Shown piece after piece: positions 37,463 through 51,117 of a DNA stretch of 64,000 bases. Position numbers and translations under genes: made by a program. Below the pieces are notes generated by a model that worked only from the letters and a program-made list of their open reading frames with translations, did not search any database and was not told where the DNA came from. Position 1 is the first letter of the stretch. Every line of letters begins with the position of its first letter. The stretch is taken from contig JABLXG010000007.1 in assembly GCA_013178165.1 (NCBI GenBank), forward strand, positions 71,168 to 135,167, read 5' to 3'. The DNA comes from Anaerolineae bacterium (lineage in GTDB: Bacteria; Chloroflexota; Anaerolineae; Aggregatilineales; Ch27).

Positions 37463-39766
37463 ATGGACCTCAAAACATCCCTGCCAACCAACCTTGAACT
37501 GCAGATTACCGGGATGGACTGCGCCGATTGCGCCCTGACCCTGGAGCGCAGCATCGCCCGGCTGAAGGACATCAGCGCCGTTGAAGTGAACTTTTCCACC
37601 GGGCGGATGCGCGTCTCCGGCAACGCCGACCGGGCCGTCATCGAGGCGTGTATCCGCAACCTGGGCTACGGTGTCGCAGAAGCCGGCAAGACCCCGGTCG
37701 CTTTGCCGGATTACAGCGGGCCGGTTGGCCTGCTACGCTTCCTGCTCGCCCGGCGGATCACGACTCTGGCGCTGGTTGGTGCGCTGCTGTTGCTGCTCAG
37801 CGCTGCTCTGACTCTGCTGGGCGCTCCGTCAGGGCCGGTGACAGCCCTGCATCTGGCTGTCGTCGCTCTGGCTGGCCTGCCGATCATGGTCAACGGTTGG
37901 CGGGAACTGCGCTACAGCCACAACATCACCATCAACCTGCTGATGAGTATTGCCACCCTTGGCGCCGCGATCATCGGCGAGACCGGTGAGGCCGCGACCG
38001 TGATCGTTCTGTTCGCCATCGGCGAAGCACTGGAGGGGTATGCTGCCGACCGCGCCCGCTATTCCCTGCGCGGCCTGCTGGATCTCGTGCCGCAGACGGC
38101 GGCGGTTCTGCGCCCATGCCTGGATTGCGCGGAACACCTGGGCCAGGGTGGCTACACGGGTGGCCCCTGTCCCTTCTGCGGCGTCCACGAAACGCGCGTG
38201 CCAGTCAGCGATCTGGCCGTCGGCGACACCATCCTCATCGCTCCCGGCGAGCGCATCCCGATGGACGGCGTCATCCGGGAGGGCAACTCGGCCATCAATC
38301 AGGCCCCGATTACAGGGGAAAGCCTGCCAGTGGAGAAGGCTACCGGCGACGAAGTCTTCGCCGGGACGATCAATGGCGCCGGGGCGCTGGAAGTCGAGGT
38401 CACCCGCCTGGCTGAAGATAACACCCTCAACCGCATCATCCATCTGGTCGAAGAAGCGCAGGCCAGCCGCGCCCCCAGTCAGCGGTTTATCGACCGGTTC
38501 GCCCGCTGGTACACCCCGATAGTGGTCATCCTGGCGCTGCTGGTTGCTGTTGCGCCGCCGCTGCTGGCCGGAGCGCCTTTCTGGGATACGTCGGATGGGC
38601 GCGGGTGGCTGTACCGGGCGCTGGCGCTGTTGATCATTGCCTGCCCGTGTGCGCTGGTGATCAGCACGCCGGTCACGATCGTCAGCGCCCTGACCAGCGC
38701 CGCCCGGCAGGGCATCCTGATCAAAGGTGGCGCGCCGCTGGAAGCGCTGGCCGGGGTGCGCGCCTTCGCCTTTGACAAGACCGGCACGCTCACCCGCGGT
38801 GAGCCAGTGCTGACCCTGGCTCAGGCCGTGGACTGCCAGACCGGGACAGGCGATCTCACCTGCGAGCCGTGCCGCGATCTACTGGCGCTGGCTGCCGCCG
38901 TCGAGCGCCGCTCCGAACATCCGCTGGCCCAGGCCGTGGTCACGGCGGCCCAACATAACGCCCTGCTCGATCGCTATCCGGCTGCCCGCGCTGTCACCAG
39001 CCTGGTTGGTCGCGGCGTGCGCGGCGAGATCGCTGGCCGCCCGATCACCATCGGCAGCCATCAGTTCTTCGAAGCCAGCTACCCTCACCCGGACGCGCTG
39101 TGCACCCGGACAGCCTACCTGGAGCAACAGGGTCACACGGTAATGCTGGTGGCCGATGGCGATCAGGTGCGCGGCCTGCTGACTGTCGCCGACCAACCCC
39201 GCCCCAGCAGCCGGGCCGCCTTGGACGAACTGAAGGCCCTTCATCCCCGTCCACGGACGATCATGCTGACCGGCGACAATCGGGTCACCGCCCGCGCCAT
39301 TGCCGACCGCGTGGGCGTCGACGACGTGCGGGCTGACCTCCTGCCCGGCGATAAGCTGGCGGTTATCCGGGCATTGCAGGCTGACTACGGCCCAACCGCC
39401 ATGATCGGCGACGGCATCAACGACGCCCCAGCCCTGGCGGAAGCCAGCGTTGGCATTGCCATAGGGACAGGCGGCACCCAACAGGCAATGGAAACCGCCG
39501 ACATTGTACTGTTACAGGATGACCTGCGCCGCTTGCCGGAGGCCGTGCGCCTGAGCCGCCGTACGCTCAGCGTGATCCGGCAGAATATCACCCTGAGCCT
39601 GGGGCTGAAAGCTGCTGTCTTACTGCTGGCGCTCGCCGGATGGTCGACGCTGTGGCTCGCTGTGCTTGCCGACATGGGCGCTTCTCTGCTGGTGACGGCC
39701 AACGGCCTGCGCTTGCTGCGCAAGCATCCCGCCGCACCTCCTCTGGCACCCCGCAACCAGGCCTGA
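37463..39766 (+). CDS. Heavy-metal translocating P-type ATPase (P1B-2, Zn/Cd/Pb type)
   Basis: 767 residues. The N-terminal HMA domain has GMDCADC (C20, C23). Hydrophobic segments (about 95-165) precede the actuator domain. An unusual insertion carries two Cys pairs (C219-x2-C222 and C236-x2-C239). The transport motif is C394-P-C396 in CPCALVIS. The phosphorylation site is DKTGTL with D438, and the hinge is GDGINDAPAL. The CPC motif and the sequence after it fit exporters of Zn2+, Cd2+ or Pb2+ from the cytoplasm. The gene is monocistronic behind the promoter and SmtB-like operator at 37370-37430. The following URO-D gene starts 255 bases later. Confidence 0.93.
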   Translation: MDLKTSLPTNLELQITGMDCADCALTLERSIARLKDISAVEVNFSTGRMRVSGNADRAVIEACIRNLGYGVAEAGKTPVALPDYSGPVGLLRFLLARRITTLALVGALLLLLSAALTLLGAPSGPVTALHLAVVALAGLPIMVNGWRELRYSHNITINLLMSIATLGAAIIGETGEAATVIVLFAIGEALEGYAADRARYSLRGLLDLVPQTAAVLRPCLDCAEHLGQGGYTGGPCPFCGVHETRVPVSDLAVGDTILIAPGERIPMDGVIREGNSAINQAPITGESLPVEKATGDEVFAGTINGAGALEVEVTRLAEDNTLNRIIHLVEEAQASRAPSQRFIDRFARWYTPIVVILALLVAVAPPLLAGAPFWDTSDGRGWLYRALALLIIACPCALVISTPVTIVSALTSAARQGILIKGGAPLEALAGVRAFAFDKTGTLTRGEPVLTLAQAVDCQTGTGDLTCEPCRDLLALAAAVERRSEHPLAQAVVTAAQHNALLDRYPAARAVTSLVGRGVRGEIAGRPITIGSHQFFEASYPHPDALCTRTAYLEQQGHTVMLVADGDQVRGLLTVADQPRPSSRAALDELKALHPRPRTIMLTGDNRVTARAIADRVGVDDVRADLLPGDKLAVIRALQADYGPTAMIGDGINDAPALAEASVGIAIGTGGTQQAMETADIVLLQDDLRRLPEAVRLSRRTLSVIRQNITLSLGLKAAVLLLALAGWSTLWLAVLADMGASLLVTANGLRLLRKHPAAPPLAPRNQA

Positions 39767-42691: not shown

Positions 42692-45600
42692 ATGGGGCAG
42701 AAGGATTTCCTGTTCCGCGACGACCTGGTCACACTCGACCCGGAAGTCGCCGCTTTGATCGGCTTTGAGGAAGCGCGCCAGCATCACCGCCTGATCCTGA
42801 TCCCATCCGAATCCACTATCTCAGCGGCAGTCCGTAGCGCTACCGCCTCTGTCTTCCAAAACATTTATGCGGAAGGCTACCCGCTGCAGAGCACGCGCAA
42901 ACTGACCGAAGCCGAGATACTGGATTACGAAGCCCGCCTGGCGGAATATCGCCGGAATTCCGATGAGCGCTACTACAAAGGGACGGAGTACGCGGATATT
43001 GTGGAAGCGCTGGCTCGCCGCCGCGCCGCCGAACTTTTCGCCACCCCTGCCATTCCGGCGGAGAAACTGTGGGTTAATGTCCAGCCTCTCTCCGGCGCGC
43101 CGGCCAACAACGCCGTTTATTCGGCACTTGTTCAACCCGGTGAGACGGTGATGGGCATGGATCTGCTCCATGGCGGGCATCTGACGCACGGCAGCCCTGT
43201 CAACCGCAGCGGTATCTACTATCACATCGTTAGCTACGGCGTCGATCCTCAGACCGAGCGGTTGGACTATGACGCCATCCAGAAGCTGGCGGAACAACAC
43301 CGCCCCCGGCTGATCATCTGCGGTTTCACCAGCTATCCCTATGTGGCTGACTATGCCCGCTTCCGCCAGATCGCCGATTCCGTCGGCGCTTACCTGCTGG
43401 CGGATATCTCTCACATTGCCGGTCTGACCGCCGCTGGCGTCGTCCCCAGCCCGATTGGCCATGCGCATGTGGTCAGCTTCACCACCCATAAGACGATGGA
43501 CGGCCCGCGTGGAGCCGTGCTGATCACCCACGACTCTGCCATCGGCCGCAAACTGGACCGCGCCGTCTTCCCCGGCGAACAGGGCGGCCCGCACATCAAC
43601 GCGATGGCTGGGATGGCTGTTGCCTTCAAGCTGGCCCGTACAGAACAGTTCCGCCGCCTGCAGGAACAAACCATCCGCAATGCCGTCCGCCTGGCGGAGA
43701 AACTGGCCGAGCACGGCTTTCGCATCCCCTATGGCGGCACCGATTCGCATATGCTCCTGCTCGACTGCAAGAGCATCACCGGCCCGGATGGCACGCCGCT
43801 CAGTGGCGACATGGCCGCTCGTATCCTGGACCTGGCCGGGATTGTCCTCAACCGCAACACCATCCCTGGCGACAAGAGCGCCTTCAGCGCCAGCGGTCTG
43901 CGCATGGGCACCCCCTGGCTGACCCAGCGCGGCTTCCGCGAGCCGGAGATTGATCGCCTGGCGGCCATCATCAGCAATGTGTTGCACGCCTGCACACCCT
44001 TCAGTTACCTCAAGGGCAACAAACCACAACTCCGCAGCAAGGTGGACTTCGATGTCCTGCAGCAGGCAGCGCTGGACGTGCGCACCCTGGTGCACGATGT
44101 GGGCATCGACACACCTGGGCCGGATGGCATTGGCTATCCCCACGTGTACTACATCGACAGCATCCCTGACACCGGCTGGCATGTCCTGGAGATCATCGGC
44201 GAGGATGCTGAGGCTTTCCTGCAGGCAGCCACCACCAACGATGTCCTGGCCCTGGGTGATGGCGACGCCCAGGCCACTAACCTGCTGAATCCGGATGGCA
44301 CACCGATCAGCCGGGGTGTCCTCAAACGGCTCAATCGTGACACTTACCATCTCCATGTGGATCGGAATGCCGGTCGGGCTGCGGCCTGGCTGCGCTCACT
44401 CTCTGACGGCTTTGTCCGCTTTGATCCGCTCGACCTGCACGGGAAATTGCCCGGCCCGGTCATCGTACGCGAGGTGAGCCACGCCCAGCCCATCCCCGGC
44501 GTCAGCGGCGATGGCTACACCGCCGGCAAGGCGTTCTTCATCGGGGTACACGGCGAACGGTACAGCGGCCCAAAGGCGGCTCCACTACCAGCCTTTAGCT
44601 GGGAAGAACCGGCCGATCAGCCCCTGCGCAAGACCACCCTGAATGCCCTACACCGCGAGCTGGGCGCCAAGATGGTGCCTTTCGCCGGCTGGGACATGCC
44701 GGTGTGGTATTCCAGCGTGGCAGAGGAGCATCTGGCCGTCCGCAACAGCGCGGGAGTTTTTGATGTTTCCCATATGGGCGTGTGGGACATCAGCGGTCGC
44801 GGCGCGGAAGCTTTCCTCGACGCCCTGACTACCAACGATGTGCGCGCCCTGAAGCCGGGCACGGCCCATTACAACTACCTGCTGGGCGTGGATGGCGTGC
44901 CGATCGATGACATTTTCGTCTACCGCCTGGCTGCCGACCACTTTATGATCGTCGTCAACGCCTCCAATGACGACAAGGACTGGGCCTGGGTCAGTGGCCT
45001 GATTGACGGCAAATATCTGGTTGATCCAGCTAATCCCGGCGCGGTGCTGCCGGGCCGCCATGAGGTCACCCTGCGCAATCTGCGCGATCCCAGGCACGGG
45101 CCAGACATGCGCGTAGATATTGCCCTGCAGGGTCCAAGTAGCCGCGACATCCTGCTCAGCCTGCATGCCAGCGAGGCTGACCGGACCGCGATCAAGAAGC
45201 TGCCCTGGGCGGGCATCGCTCATGTCACGCTCAAAGGCTACGATGTGATCGTCACCCGCACCGGCTACACCGGCGAGCGCATCGCCTATGAGTTGTTCCT
45301 CCATCCAGATAAAGCTCCCGCTTTCTTCAAGGACCTGGTGGACAGCGGCGCCGTACCCTGCGGTCTGGCCGCGCGGGATAGCCTGCGCACGGAAGCCGGT
45401 CTGCCCCTCTACGGCCACGAACTGGCCGGCATACTAGGGCTTGGCCCGGCGGACGCTGGCTTCGGCGGCTACGTCAAGACCTGGAAGCCCTTCTTCGTGG
45501 GCAAGCGGGCCTTCCTGGAACACGAGCGAACGCGCAGCGCGATGGTCACCCGCTTCCGCCTGAATGCCAAGGGCATGCGCCCGCCGCAGCCGGGTGACCC

Positions 45601-45844
45601 GGTAGTGGAGCCACGCGGGCGGGTGATCGGCATGGTCACCAGTTGCTCGATCGACAGCGAGGGTTACCAGCTGGGGCAGGCATACATCAAGACGGACTTC
45701 CTGGAGGAAGGCACACCAATCGCCATCTACACCGGCGCCGAGAAGCTGACCCTCAGCAAGCCGTTCGGCCAGCTCCGCATTGGCGACAAGGCCCCTGTGC
45801 CCACCCCGGCCACTGTGCTCAGTCGCTTCCCCAAGCGCGAGTAG
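42692..45844 (+). CDS. Fusion of serine hydroxymethyltransferase and glycine-cleavage T protein
   Basis: 1050 residues from ATG 42692 (AAGGAG 10 bases upstream). Residues about 1-450 are a complete SHMT with the PLP Lys in FTTHKTMDGPRGAVL (K267), converting serine and THF to glycine and 5,10-methylene-THF. Residues about 455-600 are a second, partial GcvT-like folate-binding segment. Residues about 647-1050 are a complete GcvT, starting KTTLNALHRELGAKMVPFAGWDMPVWYSS, with the catalytic IDD in VPIDDIFVYRL. The matching site in the partial copy is SRG, so that copy lacks the Asp pair. GcvT releases methylene-THF and ammonia from the aminomethyl-H protein. H and P proteins are encoded at 47879-51117. 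Confidence 0.93.
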   Translation: MGQKDFLFRDDLVTLDPEVAALIGFEEARQHHRLILIPSESTISAAVRSATASVFQNIYAEGYPLQSTRKLTEAEILDYEARLAEYRRNSDERYYKGTEYADIVEALARRRAAELFATPAIPAEKLWVNVQPLSGAPANNAVYSALVQPGETVMGMDLLHGGHLTHGSPVNRSGIYYHIVSYGVDPQTERLDYDAIQKLAEQHRPRLIICGFTSYPYVADYARFRQIADSVGAYLLADISHIAGLTAAGVVPSPIGHAHVVSFTTHKTMDGPRGAVLITHDSAIGRKLDRAVFPGEQGGPHINAMAGMAVAFKLARTEQFRRLQEQTIRNAVRLAEKLAEHGFRIPYGGTDSHMLLLDCKSITGPDGTPLSGDMAARILDLAGIVLNRNTIPGDKSAFSASGLRMGTPWLTQRGFREPEIDRLAAIISNVLHACTPFSYLKGNKPQLRSKVDFDVLQQAALDVRTLVHDVGIDTPGPDGIGYPHVYYIDSIPDTGWHVLEIIGEDAEAFLQAATTNDVLALGDGDAQATNLLNPDGTPISRGVLKRLNRDTYHLHVDRNAGRAAAWLRSLSDGFVRFDPLDLHGKLPGPVIVREVSHAQPIPGVSGDGYTAGKAFFIGVHGERYSGPKAAPLPAFSWEEPADQPLRKTTLNALHRELGAKMVPFAGWDMPVWYSSVAEEHLAVRNSAGVFDVSHMGVWDISGRGAEAFLDALTTNDVRALKPGTAHYNYLLGVDGVPIDDIFVYRLAADHFMIVVNASNDDKDWAWVSGLIDGKYLVDPANPGAVLPGRHEVTLRNLRDPRHGPDMRVDIALQGPSSRDILLSLHASEADRTAIKKLPWAGIAHVTLKGYDVIVTRTGYTGERIAYELFLHPDKAPAFFKDLVDSGAVPCGLAARDSLRTEAGLPLYGHELAGILGLGPADAGFGGYVKTWKPFFVGKRAFLEHERTRSAMVTRFRLNAKGMRPPQPGDPVVEPRGRVIGMVTSCSIDSEGYQLGQAYIKTDFLEEGTPIAIYTGAEKLTLSKPFGQLRIGDKAPVPTPATVLSRFPKRE
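44198..45010 (+). repeat. Internal duplicated GcvT folate-domain segment within the fusion gene
   Basis: Protein residues 503-573 (44198-44410) and 702-773 (44795-45010) align over about 70 residues: G..AEAFL.A.TTNDV.AL, then LL..DG.PI, then a RL......V segment and AW...L.DG. Only the second copy keeps the IDD motif. It looks like a partial duplication of the GcvT N-terminal domain placed between the SHMT and GcvT parts. Confidence 0.8.
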
Positions 45845-47878: not shown

Positions 47879-49381
47879 TCAGGCTGATTGAGTACTGAGT
47901 GTCGGCGGCTGTTCCGCCCAGTCAGGGATAGGCACGCAGCAGAGCACCAGTTGTTTGGCCGCCAGTACTTCATCAACGCGGCCCACCGGTGTGATATGCG
48001 GTGCCTCGTGGAGCAAATCGGGATTCTCGTGCGCTTCTCTGGCGATCGTCTTGAGCGTTTCGGCGAAGGCATCGAGTGTTTCTTTGCTCTCAGTCTCGGT
48101 CGGCTCGATCATCAACGCTTCAGGCACGATCAGCGGGAAGTAGTTGGTCGGCGGATGGTAGCCGTAATCCATCAGGCGCTTGGAGATGTCCAGCGCATGG
48201 ACATCCGGCGCATCCTTCCAGCGGCCCTCCATCACAAACTCATGCCCGCAGAAACGGTCGTAGGGCACATGGTACGTGTCACGCAACAGCGCCAGCACAT
48301 AGTTGGCATTCAGCACCGCATGGTAGGAAACATCGCGGAGGCCAGGGCCGCCATTTTCCCGGATGTACGTGTAGGCCCGGACGAGCATCCCGAAGTTGCC
48401 GTGGAACGCCTTAATACGCCCGATGCTCTTCTCCGGCATATGCCAGCCGTAGAGCGGTGGCTGTTCGTCATCGCCAGGCTCGATCTCAGTCACGATTGGC
48501 CCCGGCAGGAATGGCAGCAATTTCTCATTGCAGGCCACCGGCCCGCTGCCCGGCCCACCGCCGCCGTGCGGCGTGGAGAACGTCTTGTGCAGGTTGTAGT
48601 GCATCACATCGAAGCCGATCTCACCCGGCTTGAGCACACCCATCATGGCGTTCATGTTGGCGCCGTCCATGTACATCAGGCCGCCGCAGGCATGCACCGC
48701 CTCGATCACCTCCAGCATGTGCCTTTCAAAGAGGCCAAGTGTGCTGGGCACAGTGATCATCATGCCAGCCACGGTATCGTCGCAGGCCGCCCGCAGCGCT
48801 GCCAGATCAACGTCGCCATTCTCATCAGATGGGAGTTCCACTACCTCCAGGCCAGCCATGGAAGTCGTCGCCGGGTTGGTGCCATGAGCGCTGTTGGGCA
48901 CAAGGATTTTGGTGCGCTTGCTATCCCCACGATCCAGATGGTACTTACGAATCATGAGAATGCCGCTGAATTCTCCCTGTGCGCCAGCGGCAGGCTGCAG
49001 GCTGACCCCCTTCATCCCACTGATCTCGGCCAGCCAGGTCTGCAGGTAGTACATCAGCATCAGCGCACCCTGCGTTTCGTTGATGCCCAATCGCGGGTGT
49101 AACCCGGCAAAGCCTGGCAAGCGCGCTGCATCCTCATTGACCTTAGGGTTGTACTTCATCGTGCAGGAGCCGAGCGGGTAGAAGCCTTTGTCCACACCGT
49201 AGTTGAGGTGGCTCAGCCGCACATAATGGCGGATCACATCCACCTCACTGACTTCCGGCAAGTCAAGTTCCGCGCGGAGCAGTTCCTGAGGCAGGTCAGT
49301 CGTCGGGACATCCACCTCCGGCAAGCGCACGCCGCAACGGCCCGGCACGCTGATCTCGTAAATGAGCGGTTCGAGCTTCAT
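47879..49381 (-). CDS. gcvPB: Glycine dehydrogenase (decarboxylating) subunit 2
   Basis: 500 residues, the C-terminal half of P protein when it is split into two chains. The PLP-binding Lys lies in VMHYNLHKTFSTPHGGGGPGSGPV. It forms a heterotetramer with GcvPA, decarboxylates glycine and passes the aminomethyl group to lipoylated GcvH. The N-terminus (LIYEISVPGRCGVRLPEVDVP) matches family starts. The start ATG overlaps the gcvPA stop by four bases (ATGA), so translation is coupled. Last gene of the riboswitch-controlled operon. Confidence 0.96.
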   Translation of the reverse strand: MKLEPLIYEISVPGRCGVRLPEVDVPTTDLPQELLRAELDLPEVSEVDVIRHYVRLSHLNYGVDKGFYPLGSCTMKYNPKVNEDAARLPGFAGLHPRLGINETQGALMLMYYLQTWLAEISGMKGVSLQPAAGAQGEFSGILMIRKYHLDRGDSKRTKILVPNSAHGTNPATTSMAGLEVVELPSDENGDVDLAALRAACDDTVAGMMITVPSTLGLFERHMLEVIEAVHACGGLMYMDGANMNAMMGVLKPGEIGFDVMHYNLHKTFSTPHGGGGPGSGPVACNEKLLPFLPGPIVTEIEPGDDEQPPLYGWHMPEKSIGRIKAFHGNFGMLVRAYTYIRENGGPGLRDVSYHAVLNANYVLALLRDTYHVPYDRFCGHEFVMEGRWKDAPDVHALDISKRLMDYGYHPPTNYFPLIVPEALMIEPTETESKETLDAFAETLKTIAREAHENPDLLHEAPHITPVGRVDEVLAAKQLVLCCVPIPDWAEQPPTLSTQSA

Positions 49382-50718
49382 GAGGCGATCTCCTCCAGCG
49401 CGGCAACCAGCGCGTCAATCTCTTCGCGGGTATTCATCTCGGTCACGGCGATCAGCATGGTATTGGCCCGGTCAGGATAGTCCTGCGCCAGGTCATAGCC
49501 GCCGATGATGCCGTAATCTTCCAGCAACCGGGCGTTGATCTCCGCCACCGGTCTGGGACACCGAACCATGAACTCCTTGAAGAAGGGTTTGCTCCAGTCC
49601 ACGCTGAAGCCCGGTAGCTTGTCGATCTCCCTGGCGGCATAGTGCGATTTCTGGTAGCACAGGTTAGCGACCGTCTTCAGCCCACACTTACCCATTAGCG
49701 ACAGATAGATGCCCGCCGCCAGCGCCATCAGCCCCTGGTTAGTACAGATGTTGCTCGTTGCCTTTTCCCGGCGGATGTCCTGTTCGCGTGGGCGGAGGGT
49801 CATCACAAAGGCGCGCTGGCCGCGGTTGTCCCGCGTCTCGCCGATGATGCGCCCCGAAATCTTACGCACCAGTTGCTTGGTGCAGGCAAAGTAGCCCAGG
49901 TACGGTCCGCCAAAGCTGAGCGGGATGCCCAGCGGCTGGCCCTCGCCCACCGCCATATCCGCGCCAAGTTCGCCGGGACTCTTGAACAGCCCCAGCATGA
50001 TCGGGTCCGCGACCAGCGTCAGCAGAACCTTCTGGTTGTGCAGGCTGTCCGCCAGCCCGGTGAAGTCTTCAATCTGCCCGAAGAAGTTGGGGTACGCGAC
50101 CGCCAGCATCGCCGTCTGATCGTCAACCAGGCCGAGCAGTTCAGCCGGTGTGCGCACCCTGTCATCGCCGACAAAGGTGACATCCTGGCCCTGCAGGTAG
50201 GTGCGGACGACCTCCCGATATTGCGGATTGATTCCGGCGCTGAGCACAACCTTGCGCCGCTTGCCACGCGCCTCATTGATAGCGACAATGATTGCCTCAG
50301 CCAGGCTGGTTGCGCCGTCATAGTGGCTGGCGTTGGCGGCTTCCATGCCCGTCAGGGCGCATAGCATGCTCTGGTATTCGAAGATCGCCTGGAGCGTACC
50401 CTGGCTGACCTCCGGCTGGTAAGGCGTGTAGGCAGTGTAGAACTCCCCGCGCAGCAGGATGTGATTGATCGCGCTGGGGATGAAGTGATGGTACGCCCCG
50501 GCGCCAAGAAAGAGCGAAAAGTCCTGCACGCTGGCATTGGCGGCCTGCAGGCCATACAGCTCGGATAGCACCTCCATCTCGCTCAAAGGCTCAGGCAGTG
50601 CCAGGTGTGGAAAGCGATACTGTTCTGGCACAGCGTCAAACAGTTCCTCAATGGACTCAACGCCGATCGCCGCCAGCATCGCCCGGCGGTCGGCATCGGT
50701 ATGAGGGAGGTAGCTCAT
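49378..50718 (-). CDS. gcvPA: Glycine dehydrogenase (decarboxylating) subunit 1
   Basis: 446 residues, the N-terminal half of a split P protein. Typical segments are MSYLPHTDADRRAMLAAIGVESIEELFD, SLFLGAGAYHHFIPSAINHILLRGEFYTAYTPYQPEVSQGTLQAIFEYQSM and TGMEAANASHYDGATSLAEA. It works with GcvPB. It lies 9 bases after gcvH and overlaps gcvPB by four bases. The two-chain P protein is common in Gram-positive and Chloroflexota-like bacteria. Confidence 0.96.
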   Translation of the reverse strand: MSYLPHTDADRRAMLAAIGVESIEELFDAVPEQYRFPHLALPEPLSEMEVLSELYGLQAANASVQDFSLFLGAGAYHHFIPSAINHILLRGEFYTAYTPYQPEVSQGTLQAIFEYQSMLCALTGMEAANASHYDGATSLAEAIIVAINEARGKRRKVVLSAGINPQYREVVRTYLQGQDVTFVGDDRVRTPAELLGLVDDQTAMLAVAYPNFFGQIEDFTGLADSLHNQKVLLTLVADPIMLGLFKSPGELGADMAVGEGQPLGIPLSFGGPYLGYFACTKQLVRKISGRIIGETRDNRGQRAFVMTLRPREQDIRREKATSNICTNQGLMALAAGIYLSLMGKCGLKTVANLCYQKSHYAAREIDKLPGFSVDWSKPFFKEFMVRCPRPVAEINARLLEDYGIIGGYDLAQDYPDRANTMLIAVTEMNTREEIDALVAALEEIAS

Positions 50719-50727
50719 GGTCGCATC

Positions 50728-51117
50728 CTATTCACGCTCTGCGCAGTACTTTTCGTAGGCGTCGGCGTCCAGCAGATCATTCAGTTCGGCAGGGTTGCTG
50801 ATGGCAATCTTGATGAACCAGCCGGCGCCATAGGGATCGCTGTTGACCGTCTCCGGCGCATCCTGCAGCGCCTCGTTGATCTCAGTGACGGTACCGCTAA
50901 CCGGCATGTGCATATCCGACGCCGCCTTGACGGACTCCACCGACCCGAAAGATTCGCCTTTGGCGAATGTGGCGCCCACGTCAGGTAATTCAACGTAAAC
51001 GATATCGTTCAGAGCATCCTGGGCGTAATCGGTCAGGCCGATCACCCCCACGCTGCCTTCCACCCGAATCCATTCATCAGTCTGGGTGTACTTCAGTCCC
51101 TGTTCCACCTTGCTCAT
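50728..51117 (-). CDS. gcvH: Glycine cleavage system H protein
   Basis: 129 residues. The lipoyl-accepting Lys is in SFGSVESVKAASDMHMPVSG, preceded by the IGLTDYAQDALNDIVYVELPDVG core. It shuttles the aminomethyl group from the P to the T protein, here the C-terminal part of the 42692 fusion, and hands electrons to an L protein not seen in the window. AAAGGACC precedes the ATG. First gene after the glycine riboswitch. Confidence 0.97.
   Translation of the reverse strand: MSKVEQGLKYTQTDEWIRVEGSVGVIGLTDYAQDALNDIVYVELPDVGATFAKGESFGSVESVKAASDMHMPVSGTVTEINEALQDAPETVNSDPYGAGWFIKIAISNPAELNDLLDADAYEKYCAERE

What the first reader, a model, noticed from the sequence alone, without database searches (positions are those of the whole stretch)
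42692..45844. GlyA fused to GcvT through a partial, active-site-less GcvT repeat
One 1050-residue frame holds a full SHMT, a GcvT-like folate domain with SRG in place of the catalytic IDD, and a full GcvT. Seen directly: the two aligned segments (residues 503-573 and 702-773) and the different motif. The architecture suggests substrate channelling of methylene-THF between serine and glycine metabolism, with the middle copy as a folate-binding or structural spacer (inference). I cannot tell how widespread it is.
Basis: partly seen in the sequence, partly recalled or inferred. Interest (0 to 1): 0.7.

Follow-up and report, generated by a model that had tools for sequence, protein, structure and literature searches.

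The report
SHMT–GcvT fusion with vestigial GcvT middle
One bacterial protein joins two successive enzymes of serine and glycine metabolism through a small, catalytically dead copy of part of the second enzyme, and this design is conserved across hundreds of Chloroflexota genomes, so it is a real joint enzyme and not an assembly accident.

Summary
Window 42692-45844 encodes one uninterrupted 1050-residue protein: SHMT (about 4-435), a partial GcvT-like domain ("MID", about 497-600), a linker, and a full GcvT (about 646-1046). MID is 42% identical to the protein's own GcvT over 90 residues (E 6e-15) but lacks the catalytic Asp pair. The same chain occurs in most sampled genomes of the order, in roughly 220 of 396 genomes of the class, and in other classes of the phylum, so a splice artefact is excluded. 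New points: (1) fused SHMTs carry a 28-residue insert beside the active-site tyrosines that nine standalone SHMTs lack; (2) MID has its own invariant signature (WLxxLSDG...PGPV) and is under purifying selection; (3) six genomes of one family have split the protein, and MID stays on SHMT, with GcvT separate. MID is therefore better read as a C-terminal domain of a special SHMT than as a linker. In this genome the fusion is the only SHMT found and the only convincing T-protein; gcvH, gcvPA and gcvPB lie 2-5 kb away. Best reading: a bifunctional enzyme passing folate between two sites, with MID as a non-catalytic docking domain (inferred). No description was found in the papers searched.

The parts
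42692..45844 (+). whole fusion gene, 1050 aa, SHMT-MID-GcvT
   Evidence: conserved full length in relatives; AlphaFold2 model mean pLDDT 90.5, pTM 0.88
42701..43996 (+). SHMT part, residues about 4-435; the catalytic set S39, Y59, E61, Y94, Y95, H163, D238, H241, H266, K267, R273, R404 is invariant or nearly so in relatives
   Evidence: PF00464 1.5e-127; residue counts; Foldseek best match SHMT 6ymf E 1.5e-41, target TM-score 0.93
42884..42967 (+). 28-residue insert (residues 65-92) between AEGYP and RYY, specific to fused and split SHMT
   Evidence: 28 residues in 71 fusions with a readable motif and in 14 further fusions or splits, 2 residues in 9 standalone SHMTs
43997..44179 (+). SHMT C-terminal tail, residues 436-496: beta hairpin, helix, variable loop
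   Evidence: secondary structure; domain HMM hits
44180..44491 (+). MID: vestigial GcvT subdomain, residues about 497-600, with WLRSLSDG (566-573) and PGPV (587-590); no catalytic Asp (S540, R541)
44492..44626 (+). linker, residues about 601-645, with conserved K613 and G618 (KAFFIG) and LPAFSWEEP; absent from the split form
44627..45829 (+). full GcvT part, residues about 646-1046; D739-D740 catalytic pair
   Evidence: PF01571 4.7e-81, TIGR00528 above cut-off; PDB 1yx2 2.2e-59, 3a8i 1.6e-45; DD in 80 of 80 relatives
47879..49381 (-). gcvPB, glycine dehydrogenase subunit, partner enzyme
   Evidence: NF003346 9.6e-215
49378..50718 (-). gcvPA, glycine dehydrogenase subunit, partner enzyme
   Evidence: NF001696 4.1e-180
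50728..51117 (-). gcvH, lipoyl carrier, substrate donor of GcvT
   Evidence: TIGR00527 2e-44

Best explanation
The gene encodes a bifunctional enzyme. Its GcvT third takes the aminomethyl group from H-protein onto tetrahydrofolate and releases ammonia and methylene-THF; its SHMT third uses methylene-THF plus glycine to make serine and returns free THF (or runs in reverse). With GcvP, GcvH and a lipoamide dehydrogenase, the net reaction is two glycine to serine plus CO2 and ammonia, with the folate passed back and forth within one particle. The middle domain is one subdomain of an ancient GcvT copy that lost its catalytic residues and the rest of the enzyme. It is now a C-terminal domain of this special SHMT that, perhaps together with the 28-residue SHMT insert, holds or orients the GcvT part. 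Shown: domain content, intact catalytic residues in both enzymes, loss of them in the middle, clade-wide conservation, retention of the middle domain on SHMT where the gene is split. Inferred: both activities in vivo, folate hand-over, docking role of the middle domain.
For: Only SHMT found in the genome; the one other GCV_T-family ORF scores 65-67 bits against GcvT cut-offs of 236-300, so the fusion is the only convincing T-protein; gcvH-gcvPA-gcvPB nearby lacks a gcvT. Catalytic residues of SHMT and the GcvT DD conserved in relatives. Same chain in about 45 of 60 relatives, 384 loci encoding a relative of the middle segment in genome contigs, roughly 220 of 396 class genomes and other classes. 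MID fold: GcvT-family matches with VIA Z about 10-12, Foldseek 1yx2 E 6.5e-7. MID invariant LSDG 81/81, dN/dS 0.07-0.24. Split form keeps MID on SHMT, and the split GcvTs nest among fused ones. Fused and split SHMTs form one clade against standalone ones, and only they carry the insert. Full-length model with a confident overall arrangement, pTM 0.88.
Against: No activity, folate-binding or oligomer data exist. Coordinates of the models were not available, so no MID-SHMT, MID-insert or MID-GcvT contact was measured. Two out-of-class members (L153, L154) have strongly diverged GcvT thirds, so GcvT activity may not be universal. The split in one family shows that covalent fusion is not essential everywhere. 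Some genomes also keep separate glyA and gcvT (G050).
Confidence: 0.72

Rival explanations
1. MID is a folate store or hand-over site: paired MIDs in the SHMT oligomer bind THF at their interface, as the GcvT-related N-terminal domains of MnmE do, and pass it between the two enzymes.
For: MID is homologous to GcvT-type folate-binding domains. MnmE, which appears among the weaker matches (Z 4.6-5.7), binds two folates in the dimer interface of its N-terminal domains (PMC2749940). SHMT is an obligate oligomer, which would bring MIDs together (established knowledge).
Against: MID lacks the Asp pair and the other subdomains that form the GcvT folate site; the MnmE match lies near the Z of unrelated ferredoxin-like folds; no conserved folate motif was shown.
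Confidence: 0.17
2. MID is only a structural spacer left over from a duplicated GcvT, tolerated but not needed.
For: It lacks catalytic residues and evolves faster than the enzymes (lower column identity; higher dN).
Against: Invariant WL..LSDG and near-invariant PGPV, dN/dS well below 1, and retention on SHMT where GcvT is separate.
Confidence: 0.08
3. The chain is an assembly or frameshift artefact joining glyA and gcvT.
For: G015 shows a one-base frame break at about residue 484, and family f11 has two genes.
Against: The same open frame in dozens of independent genomes and hundreds of loci; the f11 break lies at another place, is shared by six genomes and goes with loss of the linker.
Confidence: 0.01

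Closest known systems
Serine hydroxymethyltransferase (GlyA, PF00464)
   Same: Full domain, conserved catalytic residues, model matches solved SHMTs at target TM-score about 0.93
   Different: 28-residue insert between AEGYP and RYY, extra C-terminal MID domain, fused to GcvT
Glycine cleavage T-protein (GcvT, PF01571/PF08669)
   Same: Full-length domain with the catalytic DD, 1yx2 E 2.2e-59
   Different: It is the C-terminal part of a larger chain; the C-terminal barrel scores weakly (18 bits against a cut-off of 25.9)
GcvT-containing multidomain enzymes (sarcosine oxidase alpha, DMGDH/DMGO, TMAO demethylase)
   Same: GcvT-type folate module joined to another one-carbon enzyme; found by profile and fold search
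   Different: Their partner domains are not SHMT (they make the one-carbon unit from methylated amines; general knowledge)
MnmE/TrmE N-terminal folate domain
   Same: Small GcvT-like domain; such a lone domain can bind folate as a dimer (PMC2749940)
   Different: Weak structural match to MID (Z 4.6-5.7); different protein context

Membership tests
SHMT (GlyA) | PF00464 and NF000586 above curated cut-off | tested here: met
   426 bits against 27; 438 against 335
SHMT (GlyA) | PLP lysine and active-site set conserved | tested here: met
   K267, H266, D238, H241, R404, Y94, Y95, E61
SHMT (GlyA) | SHMT activity | not testable with these tools
   needs an enzyme assay
GcvT (T-protein), C-terminal part | PF01571 and TIGR00528 above curated cut-off | tested here: met
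   272 bits against 25.6; 258 against 236; whole-protein scores that include the MID stretch, though the best stretch is 645-1011
GcvT (T-protein), C-terminal part | catalytic Asp equivalent to E. coli Asp97 | tested here: met
   D740 aligns with the residue changed in 3a8k (D97N) relative to 3a8i; DD in 80/80
GcvT (T-protein), C-terminal part | T-protein activity with H-protein | not testable with these tools
   needs an enzyme assay
GcvT, applied to MID | homology to the GcvT folate-binding domain | tested here: met
   76 of 79 members match PF01571; fold match Z about 10-12; 42% identity to own GcvT
GcvT, applied to MID | catalytic Asp and complete domains | tested here: not met
   no D at positions 540/541 in about 80 sequences; profile match covers only 49-127 of 255 positions
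MnmE-type folate domain, applied to MID | dimeric domain with folate in the interface | tested here: inconclusive
   weak fold match only; no binding or dimer test

The most novel reading that the evidence does not exclude
A phylum-wide one-chain glycine-to-serine module in which a decayed GcvT subdomain, paired with a new insert beside the SHMT active site, has become a dedicated device that couples SHMT to T-protein, working covalently in most lineages and non-covalently in the lineage that split the gene.
Probability: 0.45. Interest if true: 0.7.

Novelty: new variant of a known kind. Interest (0 to 1): 0.52.

Why it matters
SHMT and T-protein share folate in the glycine-to-serine conversion; whether they hand it over directly is a long-standing question (general knowledge). 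A natural single-chain version, together with a natural split version, gives a direct test system for folate channelling, and shows a dead enzyme fragment kept as a working domain. It could also be of use for engineered reductive-glycine pathways, which rely on both activities.

Tried and rejected
Assembly artefact: rejected by conservation. Recent internal duplication: despite 42% identity within the window protein, the MIDs form essentially one lineage apart from all GcvT copies (only 90 columns, long branches, and one row mislabelled by my script: L157_fG_630 is a MID). So the copy is old, and the tree cannot say whether it came from the fused GcvT or from another. Ancestral two-gene state for family f11: the full GcvT tree places the split GcvTs inside the fused ones (SH-aLRT 86-89), favouring secondary fission; the shorter domain tree disagreed, so this stays moderate. 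Presence on plasmids: none. Literature: eight searches, for a fused GlyA-GcvT, for the system in Anaerolineae, for SHMT/T-protein channelling and for related folate domains, gave no description of the fusion; only openly licensed papers are held, so absence is weak evidence. Distribution outside Chloroflexota was not tested beyond the best 80 of the 384 loci of the genome scan.

Full report
What is there. The + strand of the window carries an uninterrupted frame from ATG 42692 to the stop ending at 45844. Homologues begin with the same DFLFR motif at this ATG, so the upstream TTG extension is not needed. Pfam and NCBIfam find SHMT, a full GcvT at about 645-1016 and a partial GcvT match at about 503-575. 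The partial copy is 42% identical to the protein's own GcvT over 90 residues, E 6e-15.

It is conserved. A search of 60 relatives found the same full-length chain in about 45 genomes at 53-96% identity (some cut by contig ends), spread over all families of the order except f3, which has standalone short SHMT and GcvT genes. A genome-wide scan with the middle segment alone gave 384 loci; the best 80 are titled as Chloroflexota MAGs, or unclassified members of its classes, but one, and cover SHMT, middle and GcvT in one frame as far as their contigs reach. In 396 genomes of the class, roughly 220 have a match to the middle profile below 1e-15 (my hand count; weaker matches are mostly ordinary GcvT). 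Fusions also occur in other classes of the phylum.

The two enzymes look active. The SHMT catalytic residues, including the PLP lysine K267, are invariant or nearly so. The GcvT pair D739-D740 is present in 80 of 80 relatives; D740 corresponds to E. coli Asp97, identified from the difference between PDB chains 3a8i and 3a8k (D97N). This genome has no other SHMT, and its other GCV_T-family ORF is far below the GcvT cut-offs. gcvPB, gcvPA and gcvH lie at 47879-51117 on the other strand without a gcvT; in 16 of 80 related loci gcvPB also lies in the fetched flank.

The middle domain. Its predicted structure is confident (pLDDT 91.5, pTM 0.85) and matches the GcvT family with VIA Z about 10-12 over about 105-120 residues, mostly at 2.2-3.3 A, and Foldseek E down to 6.5e-7. 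The profile match covers only positions 49-127 of the 255-position GCV_T model, while the structural match to 1woo spans residues 50 to 274 with 111 aligned residues. I infer that it is one GcvT subdomain with the intervening part of another subdomain removed. The residues facing the catalytic IDD are I-S-R, and no D occurs at either position in about 80 relatives. Instead, MID has its own invariant residues: G536, W566, L567, L570, S571, D572, G573, D581 and G588, with K613 and G618 in the linker. dN/dS in MID is 0.07-0.24 against four close relatives.

A natural split. In six genomes of family f11 (G193, G175, G100, G131, G063, G210) a first gene encodes SHMT plus MID and stops shortly after the PGPV motif. 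In four of these my search also recovered the separate GcvT frame of 418-455 codons just downstream; the other two have GcvT hits elsewhere in the genome or frames my script did not score. Their MIDs keep ALSDGY in five of six (L147 has LLSEGY) and PGPV in all. The linker is gone. A tree of SHMT places fused and split forms in one clade against standalone SHMT (SH-aLRT 100), and a tree of full GcvT places the split GcvTs among fused ones, which favours secondary fission. MID thus belongs functionally with SHMT.

A linked trait. All fused and split SHMTs with a readable motif have 28 residues between AEGYP and RYY, where nine standalone SHMTs have two; more divergent members show the same length by alignment. 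The insert sits between residues that belong to the SHMT active site (Y59/E61 and Y94/Y95). The full-length model has pTM 0.88, which suggests a defined rather than a beads-on-string arrangement.

Mechanism. From established pathway knowledge, GcvT makes methylene-THF from H-protein-bound aminomethyl and SHMT consumes it with glycine to give serine, returning THF. Having both on one chain keeps the folate cycling locally. Direct channelling is plausible but untested. The most likely role of MID is docking or assembly; folate holding after the manner of the MnmE domain (PMC2749940) is a rival.

Novelty. Eight paper searches found no description, but the library is partial, and public domain databases probably already list such domain orders. 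I rate it a new variant of a known kind: known enzymes, a clade-wide fused architecture, a decayed but retained enzyme fragment, and a natural split control.

Noticed in passing
window 37463-39766 (+): Heavy-metal P-type ATPase with an N-terminal metal-binding (HMA-like) domain and an unusual Cys-rich insert (CLDCAEHLGQGGYTGGPCPFCGVHE) that resembles a zinc-binding motif.
   Followed up: no
L148 (G336:C80), L158/L159 (G104): Some family-f17 genomes carry two divergent SHMT-MID-GcvT fusions, lying close together in G336; one copy has RFYKG where the other has RYYMG.
   Followed up: partly
L153 (G619), L154 (G538): Out-of-class fusions with strongly diverged GcvT thirds: the first Asp of the pair is G or S while the second is kept; L154 also departs at several SHMT active-site positions.
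   Followed up: partly
L088 (JAOSJK010000001.1): A 1.65 Mb contig titled Acidimicrobiia carries a fusion that groups with Chloroflexota sequences: mislabelled bin or horizontal transfer; its SHMT N-terminus aligns poorly around residues 39-61, perhaps a local frame slip.
   Followed up: no
G007 and G054 (same order): No SHMT found at all, although G007 is rated 98% complete and two congeners (G020, G045) have the fusion.
   Followed up: partly
G000:C14:44281-45018: A second GCV_T-family ORF (363 aa) in the window's genome, scoring far below the GcvT cut-offs and about equally with sarcosine-oxidase alpha; function unclear.
   Followed up: partly
L037 (G015:C22): The fusion frame is shifted by one base at about residue 484, in a contig otherwise encoding both halves; probably a sequencing indel.
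   Followed up: partly
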